From positions 1-11,357 of the forward strand of contig JAWOFN010000017.1 in NCBI GenBank assembly GCA_046497505.1: a DNA stretch of 11,357 nucleotides, in the 5' to 3' direction. Both the position numbers and the translations under genes were made by a program. The notes beneath the pieces are model-generated. The model was given only the letters and a program-made list of their open reading frames with translations, did no database searches and was not told the DNA's origin. The DNA comes from JAWOFN01 sp046497505 [NCBI: bacterium]. GTDB lineage: Bacteria > Blakebacterota > Blakebacteria > Blakebacterales. The stretch's first letter is position 1. Every line of letters begins with the position of its first letter. Below, piece by piece: positions 1,819 through 9,770 of the stretch.

Positions 1819-3471
1819 ATGTGCACCATATGCGGCCACTTCGCGCAAGGGTCCGAGATCGTCTCGACCGACATCTATGACATGCTCAAGAAGACCGAGC
1901 ACAGGGGTCCGGACACCCACGGACTCTTCCTGGACGGGGTGATCCACCGGGTATCGGAGGTGGACGAACTGCGGGCACCCTCCCTGGACGAGAGCCGGAT
2001 CGGGCTCGGGCACTCCCGCCTCAGCATCGTGGGTCGGGAGGCGTTCACCCAGCCCTACGAGTCGTGTGACGGTCAGCTCACCCTCATCCACAACGGCGAG
2101 ATCTACAACTACCAAGAGCTGCAGTCGATGCTGATGCGTCATCACGACCTGCAGACCTCCAGCGACAGCGAGATCATCATCCACCTGCTGGAGGAGACAT
2201 ACGAAGGGGACCTGCTGGACGCGATGAAGAAGGTGAGCGGCCTGCTGGACGGCATGTACGCCATCGCGGTCACAGACGGAAGGAGTATCGTCGTGGCCAG
2301 GGACCCCATCGGCAAGAAGCCGGTCTACTTCGTGGAGGACCAGGAGACCACCTACTTCGCCTCGGAACGCAAGGCCCTCTGGAACGGCACCGACGAACCG
2401 GAACGGCTGAAGCCGGGGGAGATCCTCGAGATCGACGAGGAGAGGACCCGGGTCCATGACGTTCATCCGCTCCCTTATCCCCAGATCGACATCGTGGATT
2501 TCCGGGAGGCGGTCGACCTTTACAAGGAGATGATCCTCAAGGCGGTCCGGAAGCGGCTGGTGGGGCTCCGGGAGAGTGCCGTCGGGGTGATCTTCTCGGG
2601 GGGGATCGACTCGGTCCTCATCGCCAAGCTGCTGCAGCAGGAGGGCCGCAACGTGCTCTGCTACTGCACCGGCACAGAGGACTCCGGCGACGTGGCTGCC
2701 GCACGGGAAGTGGCCGACGACCTGGGCCTCACCCTCCACACCACCATCATCGACGAGGAGATGGTGGAGGGACTGCTCCCCGAGGTGATCCGGGACGTCG
2801 AGGAGAGCGGCCTGCTCCAGGTCGAGGTGGCCATACCCATGTACCTGGCCGCTCGTCGTGCCGCCGAGGACGACATCCGGGTGATGTTCACCGGCCAGGC
2901 GGCGGACGAACTGTGGGCCGGCTACCCGTGGTACAACGCCGTGCTGGAGGAACACAGCTTCCTCCGGCTCCACGAGCGGCTCTGGGAGGACCTCAACTAC
3001 CTCTACGAGGACACCCTGGAGCGGGAGGACAAGCTCACCATGGCCCACTCCATCGAACTCCGGGCACCCTACCTGGACCGGGCGGTCATCCAGACCGCCA
3101 TGCGGACCTCCCCGAGGCTGAAGATCCAGGGCCCCGACGACGGCATGGGCAAGAGGGTGCACCGCCAGGCGGCGGAGGAACTGGGCGTCCCCGCCTATCT
3201 GGCCTTCCGGGAGAAAGACCCGGCCCAGTCCGGTTCGGGTATCCACGGCATCATCCAGAAGATCGCGGCCCGGAAGATCGCTGTGCACGACGAAGGCCTC
3301 GCGAGCCGCAACATCGAAGCGGACCGGGGCAGCCTCTACCGCTACGAGACGAAAGCGTACGGCGAGGACCTCACCCGCGCCTTCCTCCAGGAGATGGAGG
3401 AGGAGATCAAGGAACGCTTCATCCCCCCCTTCCTCGCACCCGACCCGGACACGGAGGCGCAGACCGTATGA
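1819..3471 (+). CDS. asnB: Asparagine synthetase, glutamine-hydrolysing (class B, AsnB-like)
   Basis: This enzyme transfers glutamine-derived ammonia to an ATP-activated carboxylate, normally aspartate. The N-terminal glutaminase (Ntn) domain spans about residues 1-210. It has the nucleophile Cys2, Arg67 in HSRLSIVG, Asn92 in HNGEIYN, and Asp116 in SSDSEII. The synthetase domain follows, with the PP-loop SGGIDS at 260-265, the DKLTMAHSIELRAPYLD segment at about 404-420, and GMGKRVHR at 442-449. The 550-residue length is normal for the family. Two deviations stand out. The N-terminus is MCTICG rather than MCGI. The loop that reads GEGSDE in E. coli AsnB reads GQAADE (359-364). The start ATG has GGAAAG 7 bases upstream (1806-1811). 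The stop overlaps the next gene's start as ATGA, implying translational coupling. The substrate may be aspartate or another acid, so an AsnB paralogue acting on a different carboxylate is possible. Confidence 0.93.
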   Translation: MCTICGHFAQGSEIVSTDIYDMLKKTEHRGPDTHGLFLDGVIHRVSEVDELRAPSLDESRIGLGHSRLSIVGREAFTQPYESCDGQLTLIHNGEIYNYQELQSMLMRHHDLQTSSDSEIIIHLLEETYEGDLLDAMKKVSGLLDGMYAIAVTDGRSIVVARDPIGKKPVYFVEDQETTYFASERKALWNGTDEPERLKPGEILEIDEERTRVHDVHPLPYPQIDIVDFREAVDLYKEMILKAVRKRLVGLRESAVGVIFSGGIDSVLIAKLLQQEGRNVLCYCTGTEDSGDVAAAREVADDLGLTLHTTIIDEEMVEGLLPEVIRDVEESGLLQVEVAIPMYLAARRAAEDDIRVMFTGQAADELWAGYPWYNAVLEEHSFLRLHERLWEDLNYLYEDTLEREDKLTMAHSIELRAPYLDRAVIQTAMRTSPRLKIQGPDDGMGKRVHRQAAEELGVPAYLAFREKDPAQSGSGIHGIIQKIAARKIAVHDEGLASRNIEADRGSLYRYETKAYGEDLTRAFLQEMEEEIKERFIPPFLAPDPDTEAQTV

Positions 3472-4310
3472 AGGAGACCTGTCAGATCGCCGTCGCCCAG
3501 GTGGGCTTCCTGGGGGAGGACCTGGACGAGCATGTGTCCGACCTGAAGCGGGTAATCTCGGAGCACGCCGACGCCGACCTGCTGGTCTTTCCCGAACTCA
3601 TCCTCCAGGGGCACCCCAGCATGGACCGGCCGGCCGGTTTCCTCTTCCGCCGGTCCCGTGCCCTCTACGGTCCCGTCTCCCGGGACATCCACACCTTCAT
3701 CCGGGAGCGCAGGGCCCGGGTGATCCTCGGGGAGATCCGCCGGAGGAAGGAACGCCTCTCCAACATCGCCAGCTACATCGACTCCAACGGCTCACAGCAT
3801 TACACGAAGACCCACGTCCATTGGACCGAGCAGTTCGTCAGGGGACGCAGGCTTCGGACCTTCGACACCCCACTGGGGAAGGTGGGCATCAACATCTGCT
3901 TCGATGCCGCTTTCCCCGAGGTCTGGCGGGTGCTGGCCCTGAGGGGCGCGGAGATCATGGTGAACATATCGGCCGTACCCTCCGACTTCCCCACCGCATA
4001 CATGCACCGGCGCATGCGGGGGGCCGCCCTCGACAACCAGGCCTTCGTGATCTACGCCAATCGGCCCGCACCGCAGTTCGCGGGCGGCAGCGGGGTCTTC
4101 GGACCCAGGGGAGAACGGATCGCAGCAGCAGAGGAGGCTCCCGGGGTGGTCCGTGCGGAGATCGACCTGGTCGATCTGAGGGCCTGGCGGGCGGAGGAAC
4201 AGATCTTCCCCAACCGCCGTCCCGGTCTCTACAAGGCCCTGGATAACGCGGCCCTGCCCTCCCAGGCCCGCCGGGCGACAGCGGAAACCGGGAAAGCCGT
4301 GGCACGATGA
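3468..4310 (+). CDS. Nitrilase-superfamily carbon-nitrogen hydrolase
   Basis: This is a 280-residue amidohydrolase of the nitrilase fold, which hydrolyses amide C-N bonds through a Cys thioester. The catalytic residues are intact: Glu43 in FPELIL, Lys114 in YTKTHVHWTE, and Cys144 in INICFDAAFPE. The second conserved Glu121 follows the Lys. VNISAVP (about 165-171) and the ALDNQAFVIYANR strand (about 187-199) complete the pattern. The length is typical of stand-alone omega-amidase or carbamoylase-type members. The start is ATG 3468, whose last two bases begin the asnB stop codon TGA. The same frame is open upstream inside asnB, but that part has no nitrilase features. A Shine-Dalgarno-like AGGCGC lies within the asnB end. 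The coupling suggests action on, or ammonia exchange with, the AsnB reaction. The substrate is unknown. The C-terminal 25 residues or so are Ala/Arg-rich and probably disordered. Confidence 0.9.
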   Translation: MKETCQIAVAQVGFLGEDLDEHVSDLKRVISEHADADLLVFPELILQGHPSMDRPAGFLFRRSRALYGPVSRDIHTFIRERRARVILGEIRRRKERLSNIASYIDSNGSQHYTKTHVHWTEQFVRGRRLRTFDTPLGKVGINICFDAAFPEVWRVLALRGAEIMVNISAVPSDFPTAYMHRRMRGAALDNQAFVIYANRPAPQFAGGSGVFGPRGERIAAAEEAPGVVRAEIDLVDLRAWRAEEQIFPNRRPGLYKALDNAALPSQARRATAETGKAVAR

Positions 4311-4395: not shown

Positions 4396-4860
4396 ATGCC
4401 GAACCGGACCGCCACATTCCAGACCAGCAGGGGCGCCTTCTCCGTAGAACTCTTCGAGGAGCGCGCACCCGAGACCACCGGCAACTTCATCGAACTCGCT
4501 GAGGATGGGTTCTACGACGGACTGATCTTCCACCGGGTCATCGAGGGATTCATGATCCAGGGCGGGTGCCCGGAAGGGACGGGTCGGGGGGGGCCGGGCT
4601 ACACCATCGACGACGAGTTCCACCCCGAGCTCCGGCATGACGGGGCCGGCATCCTATCCATGGCGAACGCGGGCCCCGACACCGGCGGCTCCCAGTTCTT
4701 CATCACACTGGCCGCCGCACCGTGGCTGGACGACAAGCACGCGGTGTTCGGCAGGGTGACCGAGGGGATGGACACGGTGCGGGAGATCGGCGCGGTCGAG
4801 ACCGGCGTCATGGACCGCCCCGACGAGGACGTGGTCATCGAGAGCGTACGCATCGCGTAG
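4396..4860 (+). CDS. Peptidyl-prolyl cis-trans isomerase, cyclophilin type
   Basis: This enzyme catalyses cis-trans isomerisation of peptidyl-proline bonds during folding. No signal peptide is seen, so it is presumably cytoplasmic. The 154 residues form a minimal cyclophilin domain with the active-site set in place: FHRVI (Arg47), GFMIQGG (Phe52, Met53, Gln55), SMANAGPDTGGSQFFIT (Gln100, Phe101, Phe102), and WLDDKHAVFGRV (Trp110, His115). Trp110 aligns with the cyclosporin-contact Trp of human cyclophilin A. The TGRGGPGYTIDDEFH stretch and the short loops resemble, from memory, the short bacterial and haloarchaeal forms. GAGGA (4382-4386) sits 9 bases before the ATG. The gene follows the nitrilase by 85 bases on the same strand. 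It may share that transcript, although it is a housekeeping-type function and need not be related to it. Confidence 0.96.
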   Translation: MPNRTATFQTSRGAFSVELFEERAPETTGNFIELAEDGFYDGLIFHRVIEGFMIQGGCPEGTGRGGPGYTIDDEFHPELRHDGAGILSMANAGPDTGGSQFFITLAAAPWLDDKHAVFGRVTEGMDTVREIGAVETGVMDRPDEDVVIESVRIA

Positions 4861-5710: not shown

Positions 5711-5717
5711 GGAGGAG
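5711..5717 (+). promoter_or_regulatory. Ribosome binding site of the iron-sulfur subunit
   Basis: GGAGGAG ends 5 bases before ATG 5723. It decides against the in-frame GTG at 5717, which would overlap it. Confidence 0.7.
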
Positions 5718-5722
5718 TGTGC

Positions 5723-6199
5723 ATGCCTGCCTATTCCATCACCGTGAACGGGAAGCAGTGCACGGCCGACGTGGATGCCGACACCCCCCTGCTCTGGGTC
5801 CTTCGGGACACCCTGGGCCTGACCGGCACGAAGTACTCGTGCGGTGTGGGGGAATGCGGGTCGTGCGCGGTGTTCGTCGACGGAGCGCTGGAACGTTCCT
5901 GCATCCTGCCCATCAGCGCGGCCGAAGGCGCGGACATCCAGACCATCGAAGGCCTGTCGGAGGACCGCTCCCACCCGGTCCAGAAGGCATGGATCACCGA
6001 ACAGGTGCCCCAGTGCGGCTGGTGCCACTCCGGTCAGATCCTGGCTGCTGTGGACCTGCTGAGGAGGAACCCGGACCCCTCGGACGGGGAGATCGATGAG
6101 GCGATGTCCGGTTATCTCTGCCGGTGCGGCACCTACCAGCGGGTCCGCAAGGGGATCCACACCGCGGCGAAGGAGGTCCGTGATGGCGAGCGTGTCTAA
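5723..6199 (+). CDS. iorA: (2Fe-2S)2 iron-sulfur subunit of a molybdenum hydroxylase (IorA type)
   Basis: This is the electron-transfer subunit of the xanthine dehydrogenase/aldehyde oxidoreductase superfamily. It passes electrons from the molybdenum centre to an acceptor. The 158 residues contain both expected clusters. The plant-ferredoxin type has Cys40, Cys45, Cys48 and Cys60 (YSCGVGECGSC, then SC). The helical-domain type has Cys98, Cys101, Cys133 and Cys135 (CGWCHSGQ and CRCGTY). The length of about 150-160 residues is typical. No signal peptide is present, so it would reach the periplasm only as a folded complex carried by the Tat-signal partner encoded next. ATG 5723 is chosen from the GGAGGAG site just upstream. 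The gene overlaps the large subunit by 17 bases. CoxS-like or XdhC-type small subunits are close relatives, but the partner's lack of an FAD subunit favours the IorA group. Confidence 0.92.
   Translation: MPAYSITVNGKQCTADVDADTPLLWVLRDTLGLTGTKYSCGVGECGSCAVFVDGALERSCILPISAAEGADIQTIEGLSEDRSHPVQKAWITEQVPQCGWCHSGQILAAVDLLRRNPDPSDGEIDEAMSGYLCRCGTYQRVRKGIHTAAKEVRDGERV
6170..6176 (+). promoter_or_regulatory. Ribosome binding site of the molybdopterin subunit
   Basis: AAGGAGG ends 6 bases before ATG 6183. It fixes that ATG as the start, although the frame is open further upstream to 6096. Confidence 0.75.
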
Positions 6200-8303
6200 A
6201 GTCGATCGCAGGGACTTCCTGAAGGTCACCACGGCAGCCGCAGGCGGCTTGGTCGTGGGTGCACACCTGCCCCTGCCCGGGGAGGAACTCGCCGCCGGCG
6301 AGACCCTCGAACCCAACGTCTTCGTGGCCGTGGAGCCGGATGGACACATCATCTTCCACACACCCCGACCCGAGATGGGCCAGGGTTCCCGTACCGGTCT
6401 CGTCATGATCGTGGCCGACGAACTGGAAGTGGATATCGACGACATCGAGATCGTCATGGCCCTCGCCGGCCCGCGGGAGGTCTGGGGGAGCATGACGGCC
6501 GGCGGCTCGACGAGTATACGCCTCTTCTGGGAACCCCTGGGTGACGCCGCGGCGGCGGCCCGGGAGATGCTGGTCAGAGCCGCCGCCGACCGATGGGGGG
6601 TGGAGACGGGGGCCTGCAGCGCACGGCGGGGCAAGGTCGTACACACCTCCTCGGGCCGTTCCCTCACGTACGGGGAACTCACCGAGTACGCTGCGGCACT
6701 GCCCGTCCCGGAGGACCCGACCCGCAAGCAGACCCGGGAGTTCCGATACATCGGGGGGGAGAAGGACCGGGTGGACATTCCCGAGAAAGTGGACGGGAGC
6801 GCCGTCTTCGGTCTGGATTTCCGGGTGCCCGGCATGAAGTTCGCCGTCCTCAAGCGCCCGCCGGTCATCGGCGGGAGCCTCCGCGGATGGGACGACACGG
6901 AGACCATGAAGGTCCCCGGGGTGCGGCAGGTGGTGGAATTCCACGCCGGGGTCGCGGTGGTCGCCGACCACACCTGGGCCGCCCTCAAGGGGATGGATGA
7001 GCTGAAGATCGACTGGGATCCCGGCCCCCATGCGGACCTCTCAAGCGAGGGGATCGAACGCCAGCTCGAACGGGACGGACGGGAGGAACCCGTGGTGGCC
7101 GAGGACCTCAGGGGGGCCAGCGAGATCTTCGCCAGCGCTCCGAAGAGGATCTCCGCCGTCTACCACGCACCCTACATCAGCCACTCCCCCCTCGAGCCCA
7201 TCAACTGTACCGCCCATGTGAAGGAGAACGAGGTGGACGTGTGGGTGCCCACGCAGGCACCCCAGACCTGCTGGTCGGTGGCCGAGGAGACCTCCGGGAT
7301 CCCCCGGGAGGACATCCGCATCCACACCCTCTACAGCGGGGGTGCCTTCGGGCGCCGCCTCACCGCCGAGTGGGTGGCGGACGCGGTGGATATCTCGCGG
7401 ATCATCGGCGGGCCGGTCCAGATCTTCTGGGACCGGGCCGAGGACACCATGCACGGCAACTACCGTCCCATCAGCCGTCACCAGCTCGAAGCGGCCTTCG
7501 ATGAGGAGGGAAAGTGGACGGGCTGGCGTCACCGGGTCATCGCCCACTCCACCAGCCGGTCCGAGCGGTACGAGACCAACCCGAACTGGAGCGCCCTGGC
7601 CGGTGCGGCCCGCCTGGAGTACTGGTGGCCGTCGGCCCTCATCGAGTGGAAGATGTCCAACACCCCGCTGAACACCGGGGCCTGGCGCTCGGTCTACGAG
7701 TCCCAGAACCGCTTCGCCACCGAGGCCTTCATCGACGAGGTGGCCCACGAGCTGGGGAGGGACCCCCTCGACCTGCGGCTGGAACTCCTGGAGGGTCGGG
7801 ACGCCCGGATCCAGACGGTCCTGGAAACGGCCGCGAAGGCCATCGGGTGGGGGCGCTCCATGCCGGAGGGGCGCGGTCTGGGTATCGCATGCACCCACTG
7901 CTTCCGGGGCCGCCTGGCCCATGCCGTCGAGGTGGAGGTGGAAAGCGACGGCACCATCCGGGTCCACCGTGTCGAGAGCGCCATCGACCCCGGCTGGGCG
8001 GTCTATCCCGACGGGGTACGCCAGCAGGTCGAGGGCGGGGTGGCGCTGGCGCTCAGCGTGGCCCTGGGCGAGGAGATCACGGTCCAGGACGGTGTGGTGC
8101 AGCAGCGCACCTTCAGCGAATACCCCATCCTCACCTTCGATCAGCATCCCGAGGTGAACGTGCACATCATCGACGGCGGCGAGCCCATAGGGGGCGTGGG
8201 AGAACCCCCGATCCCGCCGCTGGCTCCCGCGGTGGCCAACGCGGTCTTCGCCGCTACCGGTGTGCGCCTTCGGCGGATGCCGTTCGGGAAGGTGGAGAGG
8301 TAG
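6183..8303 (+). CDS. iorB: Molybdopterin-binding subunit of an isoquinoline 1-oxidoreductase/aldehyde oxidoreductase-type enzyme, Tat-exported
   Basis: This is the catalytic subunit of a molybdenum hydroxylase, which oxidises aldehydes or N-heterocycles using water as the oxygen source. The 706 residues begin with a twin-arginine signal (DRRDFLK, Arg9-Arg10, then TTAAAGGLVVGA), placing the enzyme in the periplasm. Cofactor-binding segments are visible in order: PEMGQG (about 63-68), GGAFGRR (386-392), FWDRAEDTMHGNYRP (about 416-430), and WRSVYESQNRFATEAF (about 501-516). IGGVGEPP follows near the C-terminus with the likely catalytic Glu674. The split-domain layout and length of about 700 match IorB rather than the longer XdhB/CoxL proteins with a separate FAD subunit. 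Sequence alone does not distinguish a quinoline-type substrate from an aldehyde or nicotinate-type one. No cytochrome c or FAD subunit and no XdhC/MocA chaperone gene lies in the window. ATG 6183 was chosen from the AAGGAGG site; it overlaps iorA by 17 bases. Confidence 0.92.
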   Translation: MASVSKVDRRDFLKVTTAAAGGLVVGAHLPLPGEELAAGETLEPNVFVAVEPDGHIIFHTPRPEMGQGSRTGLVMIVADELEVDIDDIEIVMALAGPREVWGSMTAGGSTSIRLFWEPLGDAAAAAREMLVRAAADRWGVETGACSARRGKVVHTSSGRSLTYGELTEYAAALPVPEDPTRKQTREFRYIGGEKDRVDIPEKVDGSAVFGLDFRVPGMKFAVLKRPPVIGGSLRGWDDTETMKVPGVRQVVEFHAGVAVVADHTWAALKGMDELKIDWDPGPHADLSSEGIERQLERDGREEPVVAEDLRGASEIFASAPKRISAVYHAPYISHSPLEPINCTAHVKENEVDVWVPTQAPQTCWSVAEETSGIPREDIRIHTLYSGGAFGRRLTAEWVADAVDISRIIGGPVQIFWDRAEDTMHGNYRPISRHQLEAAFDEEGKWTGWRHRVIAHSTSRSERYETNPNWSALAGAARLEYWWPSALIEWKMSNTPLNTGAWRSVYESQNRFATEAFIDEVAHELGRDPLDLRLELLEGRDARIQTVLETAAKAIGWGRSMPEGRGLGIACTHCFRGRLAHAVEVEVESDGTIRVHRVESAIDPGWAVYPDGVRQQVEGGVALALSVALGEEITVQDGVVQQRTFSEYPILTFDQHPEVNVHIIDGGEPIGGVGEPPIPPLAPAVANAVFAATGVRLRRMPFGKVER

Positions 8304-8812: not shown

Positions 8813-8858
8813 CTTGGGCATCGGATATCCCCGTCCTGCCACTCATCGGGGGGCTCAC

Positions 8859-9770
8859 ATGATCGCTGCTTATCCATCCTATCTCGCCCACCTCGAATCG
8901 GGGGAGCTGGAACGCCGCAGCAGGGCTCTGCGTGCGGAACTGACCCGATGCACCCTCTGTCCCCGCCGATGCGGGGCGGACCGTTCCGACCCGCGTTCCG
9001 CCCACTGCGGTATCGGGCTCCGTGCCCGGGTGGCGGCGGCCCATCCCCACTTCGGGGAGGAACGGGTGATCAGCGGACGGCGCGGCAGCGGGACCATATT
9101 CTTCGCCGGCTGCAGCCTCCGCTGCTGGTTCTGTCAGAACGCTGATATCAGCCACCTCCGGTCGGGGAAGGAGGTCTCAGCGGAGTCCCTGGCGGGGACC
9201 ATGCTGGACCTCCAGGGTCAGGGGGTGCACAACATCAACCTGGTCACTCCCACCCATGTGGCCCCCCACATCCTCGAAGCCCTGGTCGTGGCCGCCCGGA
9301 AGGGCCTGCGGCTCCCCCTCGTGTACAACAGCGGGGGGTACGACAGTGTCCGCACCCTCCGCATGCTGGACGGGGTGGTGGACGTCTACATGCCCGACTT
9401 CAAGTACGCCCATCCCAAACCGGCCCGACGCCTCTCCGGAGCGGCCGACTATCCCCGCGCGGCACGGATGGCCCTCATCGAGATGCATCGCCAGGTCGGT
9501 CACCTGGTGACCGGTCCGGCGGGGATCGCCTACCGAGGCCTGCTGGTCCGCCACCTGGTGCTCCCCGACGATCAGGCGGGCACACGTTCCTGCATGCAGT
9601 TCCTGGCCGAGACGCTGGGATCCCGGACCCATGTGAACCTCATGGATCAATATCGTCCCGCCTATCTGTCCCACCGGAGGCCGGAGGTGGACCGCCCCCT
9701 GAAGCGTGCGGAATACCTCGACGCGCTGCGGGCCGCCGAGGAGGCGGGCGTCACCGTATTGTCGGGATGA
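8859..9770 (+). CDS. PflX-type radical SAM protein (COG1313-like, pyruvate formate-lyase activase homologue)
   Basis: This is a radical S-adenosylmethionine enzyme of 303 residues. The cluster-binding motif is C-x3-C-x2-C at Cys85, Cys89 and Cys92 (AGCSLRCWFCQN), preceded by the GSGTIFF strand typical of this family. An N-terminal block has four more cysteines: CTLCPRRCGADR with Cys31, Cys34 and Cys38, plus Cys50 in HCGIG. This block is the hallmark of the PflX group and may bind a second metal or Fe-S centre. VTPTHVAPHILEAL, LVYNSGGYD, VDVYMPDFKYA and the C-terminal MDQYRPAY segment follow family order. Relatives are annotated as activase homologues, but their substrate is not established. 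No glycyl-radical enzyme lies in the window. ATG 8859 follows GGGGGG (8848-8853) by 5 bases. The stop overlaps the next start as ATGA. Confidence 0.92.
   Translation: MIAAYPSYLAHLESGELERRSRALRAELTRCTLCPRRCGADRSDPRSAHCGIGLRARVAAAHPHFGEERVISGRRGSGTIFFAGCSLRCWFCQNADISHLRSGKEVSAESLAGTMLDLQGQGVHNINLVTPTHVAPHILEALVVAARKGLRLPLVYNSGGYDSVRTLRMLDGVVDVYMPDFKYAHPKPARRLSGAADYPRAARMALIEMHRQVGHLVTGPAGIAYRGLLVRHLVLPDDQAGTRSCMQFLAETLGSRTHVNLMDQYRPAYLSHRRPEVDRPLKRAEYLDALRAAEEAGVTVLSG

What the first reader, a model, noticed from the sequence alone, without database searches (positions are those of the whole stretch)
1819..4310. Translationally coupled asparagine synthetase and nitrilase: possible amide-processing or ammonia-sharing module
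The two genes overlap as ATGA and both keep their catalytic residues (AsnB Cys2 and PP-loop; nitrilase Glu43-Lys114-Cys144). In glutamine-dependent NAD+ synthetase, a nitrilase-type glutaminase is fused to an ATP pyrophosphatase and feeds it ammonia (established knowledge). Here the ATP-pyrophosphatase partner is an AsnB that already has its own Ntn glutaminase. The pair could therefore be a synthetase with a second amidase that supplies ammonia, edits the product, or hydrolyses a made amide or peptide. This is inference from adjacency and intact sites.
Basis: partly seen in the sequence, partly recalled or inferred. Interest (0 to 1): 0.6.

Follow-up and report, generated by a model that had tools for sequence, protein, structure and literature searches.

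The report
Conserved AsnB-like synthetase–nitrilase gene pair
Two neighbouring bacterial genes, an amide-forming enzyme related to asparagine synthetase and a nitrilase-type amidase, travel together from genome to genome and look like an uncharacterised amide-making module in which the amidase may supply the ammonia.

Summary
The pair is real (AsnB-like 1819-3471, nitrilase 3468-4310, ATGA overlap) and is a conserved module. In 21 of 21 genomes where the nitrilase orthologue was found, an AsnB orthologue lies directly upstream on the same strand. Among 395 genomes of one phylum the two families occur in the same 14, with mostly different flanking genes.

In 22 of 22 AsnB copies the synthetase core is intact, but E. 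coli AsnB's aspartate-binding Arg is Glu and Glu348 is Gln. The acceptor is probably not aspartate. The nitrilase Glu-Lys-Glu-Cys set is invariant (22 of 22), whereas the AsnB's own glutaminase residues are altered in 6 of 22, by two events at least and three on the AsnB tree.

This fits, but does not prove, a nitrilase acting as second ammonia source, as in two-subunit NAD synthetase; product editing with free ammonia is a close rival. Glutaminase loss also occurs in 4 of 16 non-module relatives, so it is suggestive only. The acceptor is unknown. Four searches of an open paper library aimed at the pair found no description of it. New variant of a known kind.

The parts
1819..3471 (+). AsnB-family ATP-dependent amidotransferase (550 aa): N-terminal class II glutaminase domain and C-terminal synthetase domain with altered acceptor site
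   Evidence: Pfam PF00733, PF13537, PF13522 over cut-off; TIGR01536 331 bits against cut-off 267; orthologues; residues
3468..4310 (+). Nitrilase-superfamily amidase (280 aa) with Glu43, Lys114, Glu121, Cys144
   Evidence: PF00795 110 bits, cut-off 23; no named NCBIfam model over its cut-off; active-site residues invariant 22 of 22; one branch
3468..3471 (+). ATGA stop/start overlap, possible translational coupling
   Evidence: sequence; overlap also in G186, G333 and G246
1822..1824 (+). Cys2 codon of the AsnB glutaminase domain, intact in the window; replaced in G315, G568 and G162
2818..2844 (+). Acceptor-site motif QVEVAIPMY (residues 334-342): Gln334 and Glu336 stand where E. coli AsnB has Thr and the aspartate-binding Arg

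Best explanation
A self-contained two-gene amide-forming module. SHOWN: the two genes are linked in every genome found; both are under purifying selection in the pairs tested; the synthetase core and the nitrilase active site are invariant; the acceptor site differs from that of E. coli AsnB; the AsnB's own glutaminase site has been altered more than once. INFERRED: the AsnB-like enzyme activates a carboxylic acid other than aspartate with ATP as an acyl-adenylate and amidates it. The co-expressed nitrilase hydrolyses an amide donor (glutamine or another amide) and supplies ammonia to the synthetase, so that the system has two ammonia sources and several lineages could alter or lose the built-in one. 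It would work like two-subunit NAD synthetase (synthetase plus separate nitrilase subunit), with an AsnB-type synthetase.
For: Adjacency in 21 of 21 genomes; nitrilase and AsnB profiles each hit 14 of 395 genomes, the same 14. Synthetase residues Ser234, Gly235, Gly236, Asp238, Ser239, Asp351, Glu352, Arg387 and Lys449 invariant in 22 of 22, aspartate-binding Arg to Glu and Glu348 to Gln in 22 of 22. Nitrilase Glu43, Lys114, Glu121, Cys144 invariant in 22 of 22 while Cys1, Arg49, Asn74 or Asp98 of the AsnB glutaminase is changed in 6 of 22; the six are not one clade (p-AU 3e-77). Between the sisters G186 and G333, both with Arg49 to Thr, dN/dS is 0.11 (AsnB N-domain), 0.07 (C-domain) and 0.07 (nitrilase), so the altered pair is still selected. 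Precedent: T. thermophilus NAD synthetase, where adjacent synthetase and nitrilase genes give a co-purifying complex that uses glutamine, the synthetase alone only ammonia (PMC3376133, section 12).
Against: No test of glutaminase activity or complex formation. The glutaminase site is intact in 16 of 22 copies. Loss of Cys1 is not peculiar to the module: 4 of 16 non-module AsnB-family proteins in eight of these genomes lack it (all 4 below the TIGR01536 cut-off; the 12 above it keep Cys1, Arg49, Asn74 and Asp98). Altered copies could use free ammonia. The number of independent alterations is small: two forced, three on the AsnB tree. Arg49 to Thr with Cys1 intact may change rather than abolish donor use. 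The N-domain as a whole is not evolving faster in altered lineages. 14 of 16 paralogues also lack the aspartate-binding Arg, and B. subtilis AsnB paralogues restore asparagine prototrophy to E. coli although one of them amidates diaminopimelate (PMC8554201, passages), so replaced residues do not prove another acceptor.
Confidence: 0.38

Rival explanations
1. Synthetase plus editor or recycler: the AsnB-like enzyme amidates its acid with glutamine or free ammonia, and the nitrilase hydrolyses an unwanted or surplus amide (the product, a misamidated analogue or an omega-amide by-product), as Nit1/Nit2-type amidases do in metabolite repair.
For: Obligate pairing with one active site each. Solved fold relatives of the nitrilase include Nit2-type enzymes and amidases of small omega-amides. 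Altered glutaminase sites could simply reflect ammonia use.
Against: Scores to the deaminated-glutathione amidase models are far below cut-off (52 against 355 and 43 against 500 bits), and E. coli YafV (2-oxoglutaramate amidase) lies outside the module branch. An editor gives no reason for the glutaminase site to be altered.
Confidence: 0.3
2. Consecutive pathway steps: the nitrilase opens an amide or carbamoyl compound taken up or made by the cell and the AsnB-like enzyme amidates the resulting acid (or the reverse order), in a catabolic or exchange pathway.
For: An ABC importer with a solute-binding protein follows directly in G002, G331, G315 and G405, with a fragment of such an ATPase in G568. 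Best-scoring named model and fold match of the nitrilase is N-carbamoylputrescine amidase.
Against: In the other neighbourhoods examined no such transporter adjoins the pair; the N-carbamoylputrescine amidase score is 72 bits against a cut-off of 410.
Confidence: 0.2
3. Ordinary asparagine synthetase beside an unrelated amidase, kept together by descent.
For: The AsnB passes the TIGR01536 equivalog cut-off (331 against 267 bits).
Against: Same 14 of 395 genomes for both genes and 21 of 21 adjacency with mostly different flanks; acceptor-site residues replaced in 22 of 22; G275 and G333 carry a separate AsnB, 37-38% identical to E. coli AsnB, that keeps the Arg and the Glu (L052, L046).
Confidence: 0.06

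Closest known systems
Two-subunit glutamine-dependent NAD+ synthetase (T. thermophilus TTC1538-TTC1539; PMC3376133)
   Same: ATP-pyrophosphatase-type synthetase and a nitrilase encoded side by side; adenylation followed by amidation (paper passages; section 12).
   Different: The synthetase here is AsnB-type and already has a class II glutaminase domain; the paper's Table 1 (passage) gives AsnB as 100% fusion with class II and the nitrilase class only for NAD synthetase. The nitrilase here scores 52 bits on an NAD synthase model with cut-off 479.
Asparagine synthetase B, E. coli type (1ct9)
   Same: Domain order, SGG-DS loop, SDE-type motif, best fold and sequence match in the PDB.
   Different: Aspartate-binding Arg replaced by Glu and Glu348 by Gln in 22 of 22; E. 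coli-type model 294 bits against cut-off 499.
AsnB-family amidotransferases with other acceptors (diaminopimelate amidation, Listeria AsnB, PMC8554201)
   Same: AsnB-family proteins annotated as asparagine synthase that amidate another carboxylate (section 18).
   Different: No nitrilase partner is mentioned in the passages I saw; the module shows no steady link to cell-wall genes.
Nitrilase-superfamily amidases (N-carbamoylputrescine amidase, P. horikoshii amidase, Nit2)
   Same: Fold and Glu-Lys-Glu-Cys residues; best matches in sequence and fold.
   Different: 20-28% identity in the fold matches listed, below every named cut-off, separate branch.

Membership tests
Asparagine synthetase (glutamine-hydrolysing), AsnB | Class II glutaminase domain with Cys1 plus synthetase domain with SGG-DS loop | tested here: met
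   Pfam and TIGR01536; met in the window, Cys1 absent in 3 of 22 module copies
Asparagine synthetase (glutamine-hydrolysing), AsnB | Aspartate-binding Arg (R325) and Glu348 as in E. coli AsnB | tested here: not met
   Glu and Gln in 22 of 22; role of Arg325 from passages in PMC12018205 and PMC5775275; role of Glu348 is recalled, not from a call
Asparagine synthetase (glutamine-hydrolysing), AsnB | Makes asparagine from aspartate | not testable with these tools
   needs assay or complementation
Nitrilase superfamily (PF00795) | CN_hydrolase fold with Glu-Lys-Cys (and second Glu) | tested here: met
   PF00795 110 bits, residues 22 of 22, fold; Glu121 lies in a stretch of the model with pLDDT under 50
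N-carbamoylputrescine amidase / deaminated glutathione amidase | Score over curated NCBIfam cut-off | tested here: not met
   71.8 of 410 bits; 51.9 of 355 and 42.6 of 500 bits
Two-subunit amidotransferase with nitrilase glutaminase (as type C NAD synthetase) | Synthetase and nitrilase genes adjacent and co-occurring | tested here: met
   21 of 21 adjacent; same 14 of 395 genomes
Two-subunit amidotransferase with nitrilase glutaminase (as type C NAD synthetase) | Complex in which the nitrilase supplies ammonia from glutamine | not testable with these tools
   no complex prediction or assay available
N-acetylglutaminylglutamine amidotransferase (TIGR03104) | Score over curated cut-off | tested here: not met
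   166 of 570 bits
Diaminopimelate amidotransferase (AsnB/LtsA type) | Extra loop and clade described in PMC8554201 | not tested
   reference sequences were not fetched

The most novel reading that the evidence does not exclude
An amidotransferase with two unrelated glutaminases, caught in the act of exchange: an AsnB-type synthetase with its class II domain plus a nitrilase (class IV) subunit, in which several lineages have already disabled the class II site and run on the nitrilase, making an amide other than asparagine.
Probability: 0.27. Interest if true: 0.72.

Novelty: new variant of a known kind. Interest (0 to 1): 0.5.

Why it matters
If the nitrilase feeds the AsnB-like synthetase, it would be a further amidotransferase family with a nitrilase-type glutaminase (the one paper I saw lists that class only for NAD synthetase), and its intact and altered copies would let a glutaminase exchange be followed step by step. 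If it edits the product instead, the pair still points to an undescribed amide metabolite. Either way, a group of proteins that passes the asparagine-synthase model cut-off is probably misnamed.

Tried and rejected
Considered and dropped. Chance adjacency (21 of 21). Ordinary asparagine synthetase. Named nitrilase functions (no model over its cut-off). A larger conserved operon: apart from the pair, no gene family was shared by more than five of 16 neighbourhoods; the recurring pieces are an ABC importer (four genomes and a fragment in a fifth) and a deoxyhypusine-synthase-like gene (two). Faster evolution of the whole glutaminase domain in altered lineages: not seen. More glutaminase loss in the module than in all other AsnB paralogues: not seen, 6 of 22 against 4 of 16; the Fisher p of 0.07 compares 6 of 22 with 0 of 12 and leaves out the 4 paralogues below the family cut-off, so I give it no weight. 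An osmolyte reading, suggested by a betaine-type transporter beside the pair in G001 that I recognised by eye from ORF translations, was not pursued because it does not recur beside the pair in the neighbourhoods listed.

Led nowhere. Viral contigs: searches found no relative, one remote nitrilase stretch (27% identity). Plasmids: searches found only distant relatives (best listed rows 31% and 32% identity). Nine paper searches of an open-licence PMC library; others were aimed at the pair (4, 0, 0 and 0 papers listed; of the four, one was read in part and three seen only as listing). The AsnB model is of moderate quality (mean pLDDT 72.5) and was used only for fold matching.

Limits. No whole genome is held for the window and its phylum was not determined. 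The one genome-contig scan used exact peptides of the window protein and gave two loci, so the spread outside the one phylum searched is unknown. In one search only three candidates per genome were scored for many genomes, so distant copies may be missed. Genomes are related, so the co-occurrence p-value overstates independence. A notebook line calls a stop in the G162 nitrilase a sign of decay; I do not keep that: it only shortens the C-terminal end.

Full report
What is there. The window encodes an AsnB-family protein (1819-3471, 550 aa) and a nitrilase-superfamily protein (3468-4310, 280 aa) that overlap as ATGA. The first has both halves of AsnB in Pfam and passes TIGR01536 (331 against 267 bits) but not the E. 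coli-type AsnB model (294 against 499). The second passes PF00795 and no named nitrilase model. The best solved relatives by sequence are E. coli AsnB 1ct9 (122 bits) and P. horikoshii PH0642 (67 bits). Predicted models agree: AsnB to 1ct9, E 8e-24 (mean pLDDT 72.5), nitrilase to N-carbamoylputrescine amidase and other amidases, E about 2e-19 (mean pLDDT 79.2, residues 117-127 below 50).

The pair is a module. A scan of one genome for each of 84,980 species with exact peptides of the window nitrilase gave two orthologues, both next to an AsnB orthologue. A profile of three nitrilases hit 14 of 395 genomes of the phylum of G001 at E<=1e-40. Further searches gave 11 of 297 of the same phylum, one new (G002), 3 of 149 relatives of G331, one new (G405), 6 of 85, two new (G565, G568), and 8 of 63, three new (G635, G636, G638); 2 of 12 and again 2 of 12 added none. 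That makes 21 genomes. In all 21 the AsnB orthologue lies directly upstream on the same strand (16 of 16, 5 of 5; the G565 nitrilase is cut by a contig end). The reverse test, an AsnB profile of 17 rows at E<=1e-120, hit 14 of the 395 genomes, the same 14. If genomes were independent, which they are not, Fisher p would be 5e-26. The class lists of G275, G284 and G246 share no module genome and none contains G001, so at least four classes are involved.

Neighbours. In 15 neighbourhoods and the window no gene family other than the pair was shared by more than five of the 16. An ABC importer follows the pair in G002, G331, G315 and G405, and a fragment of such an ATPase in G568 (solute-binding proteins of G002, G315 and G405 by Pfam, the rest by clustering or by eye). 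A deoxyhypusine-synthase-like gene precedes the pair in G002 and G331. In the window the neighbours are a protein without Pfam match upstream (601-1638) and a cyclophilin downstream (4396-4860).

Trees and selection. With 21 module nitrilases, 25 other nitrilase-type rows from the same genomes and E. coli YafV, the module is one branch (100/100). The AsnB and nitrilase trees share the groups G002/G331/G405, G186/G333, and the seven rows G323, G284, G636, G635, G055, G198 and G638, each at 100; G275/G565 has 100 in the AsnB tree and 68 in the nitrilase tree. The window's AsnB groups with G246 and G125 (95/90). dN/dS is 0.06-0.27 in the five sister pairs tried for AsnB and the four for the nitrilase.

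Acceptor site. Residue numbers are those of E. coli AsnB without Met, except Arg325, the literature number of the TTIRAS arginine. In 22 module AsnBs Ser234, Gly235, Gly236, Asp238, Ser239, Asp351, Glu352, Arg387 and Lys449 are invariant, while the aspartate-binding Arg is Glu, Thr322 is Gln and Glu348 is Gln, each 22 of 22. A review says that Arg325 of E. coli AsnB has a role in aspartate binding and transition-state stabilisation (PMC12018205, passages); a wheat paper lists the corresponding Thr and Arg as aspartate/ATP-binding and names the glutamine-site residues (PMC5775275, passages). The role of Glu348 is recalled. A reversed charge at this position in every copy is why I think the acceptor is not aspartate. 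Against this, 14 of 16 non-module AsnB-family proteins in eight of these genomes also lack the Arg, and B. subtilis paralogues can restore asparagine prototrophy to E. coli (PMC8554201, passages).

Glutaminase site. Cys1 is Ser in G315 and G568 and Gly in G162; Arg49 is His in G331, Thr in G162, G186 and G333, Ser in G568; Asn74 is Ser in G331 and G568; Asp98 is Ser in G162. So 6 of 22 copies are altered, while nitrilase Glu43, Lys114, Glu121 and Cys144 are intact in 22 of 22. On the AsnB tree this takes three changes, at least two being forced; all six as one clade is rejected (p-AU 3e-77), the five without G331 as one clade is not (p-AU 0.22). The nitrilase tree instead puts G315 with G275 (97/93), which would raise the number. 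N-domain branch lengths of altered lineages are not raised against the C-domain, so the fold is kept while the site changes. Control: of the 16 non-module AsnB-family proteins, the 12 over the TIGR01536 cut-off keep Cys1, Arg49, Asn74 and Asp98 and the 4 below it lack Cys1. Loss of the glutaminase therefore happens elsewhere in the superfamily; it is suggestive here, not diagnostic.

Mechanism. The reading that uses most observations is a synthetase with a second, nitrilase-type ammonia source. The precedent is T. thermophilus NAD synthetase, whose adjacent synthetase and nitrilase genes give a complex that uses glutamine and ammonia, the synthetase alone having comparable activity only with ammonia (PMC3376133, section 12; passages). 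The rival, a nitrilase that edits or recycles an amide while ammonia is free, is nearly as good. AsnB-family proteins with other acceptors are established: Listeria AsnB amidates diaminopimelate although annotated as asparagine synthase (PMC8554201, section 18; passages).

Verdict. A new variant of a known kind, interest 0.5.

Noticed in passing
L097:1039-8642 (G275); related genes at L098:6440-14287 (G333): In G275 a same-strand stretch holds a second nitrilase, two MTTB-family (trimethylamine methyltransferase-like) proteins, a beta-lactamase-fold protein, a FAD oxidoreductase and an AsnB-like protein without Cys1 (Pfam). G333 has a similar nitrilase (Pfam) near MTTB-like genes (by eye) and a more E. 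coli-like AsnB. Another AsnB-nitrilase association.
   Followed up: partly
L021:6278-7336 and L022:12577-13635: A bacterial deoxyhypusine-synthase-like gene stands directly before the pair in G002 and G331, below the cut-offs of the named NCBIfam models in G002.
   Followed up: partly
L135:7917-9449: A distant AsnB relative (31% identity) on a Streptomyces cellulosae plasmid lies near amino-acid-adenylation genes, a halogenase and a penicillin-acylase-like gene, so probably in a natural-product cluster.
   Followed up: no
window 5717-8303: A 2Fe-2S subunit and a molybdopterin-binding subunit with a twin-arginine signal, of the xanthine dehydrogenase/aldehyde oxidase superfamily, adjacent and overlapping; no named NCBIfam equivalog over its cut-off.
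   Followed up: no
window 8814-9770: Radical SAM protein that resembles activating enzymes but is far below the named NCBIfam cut-offs.
   Followed up: no
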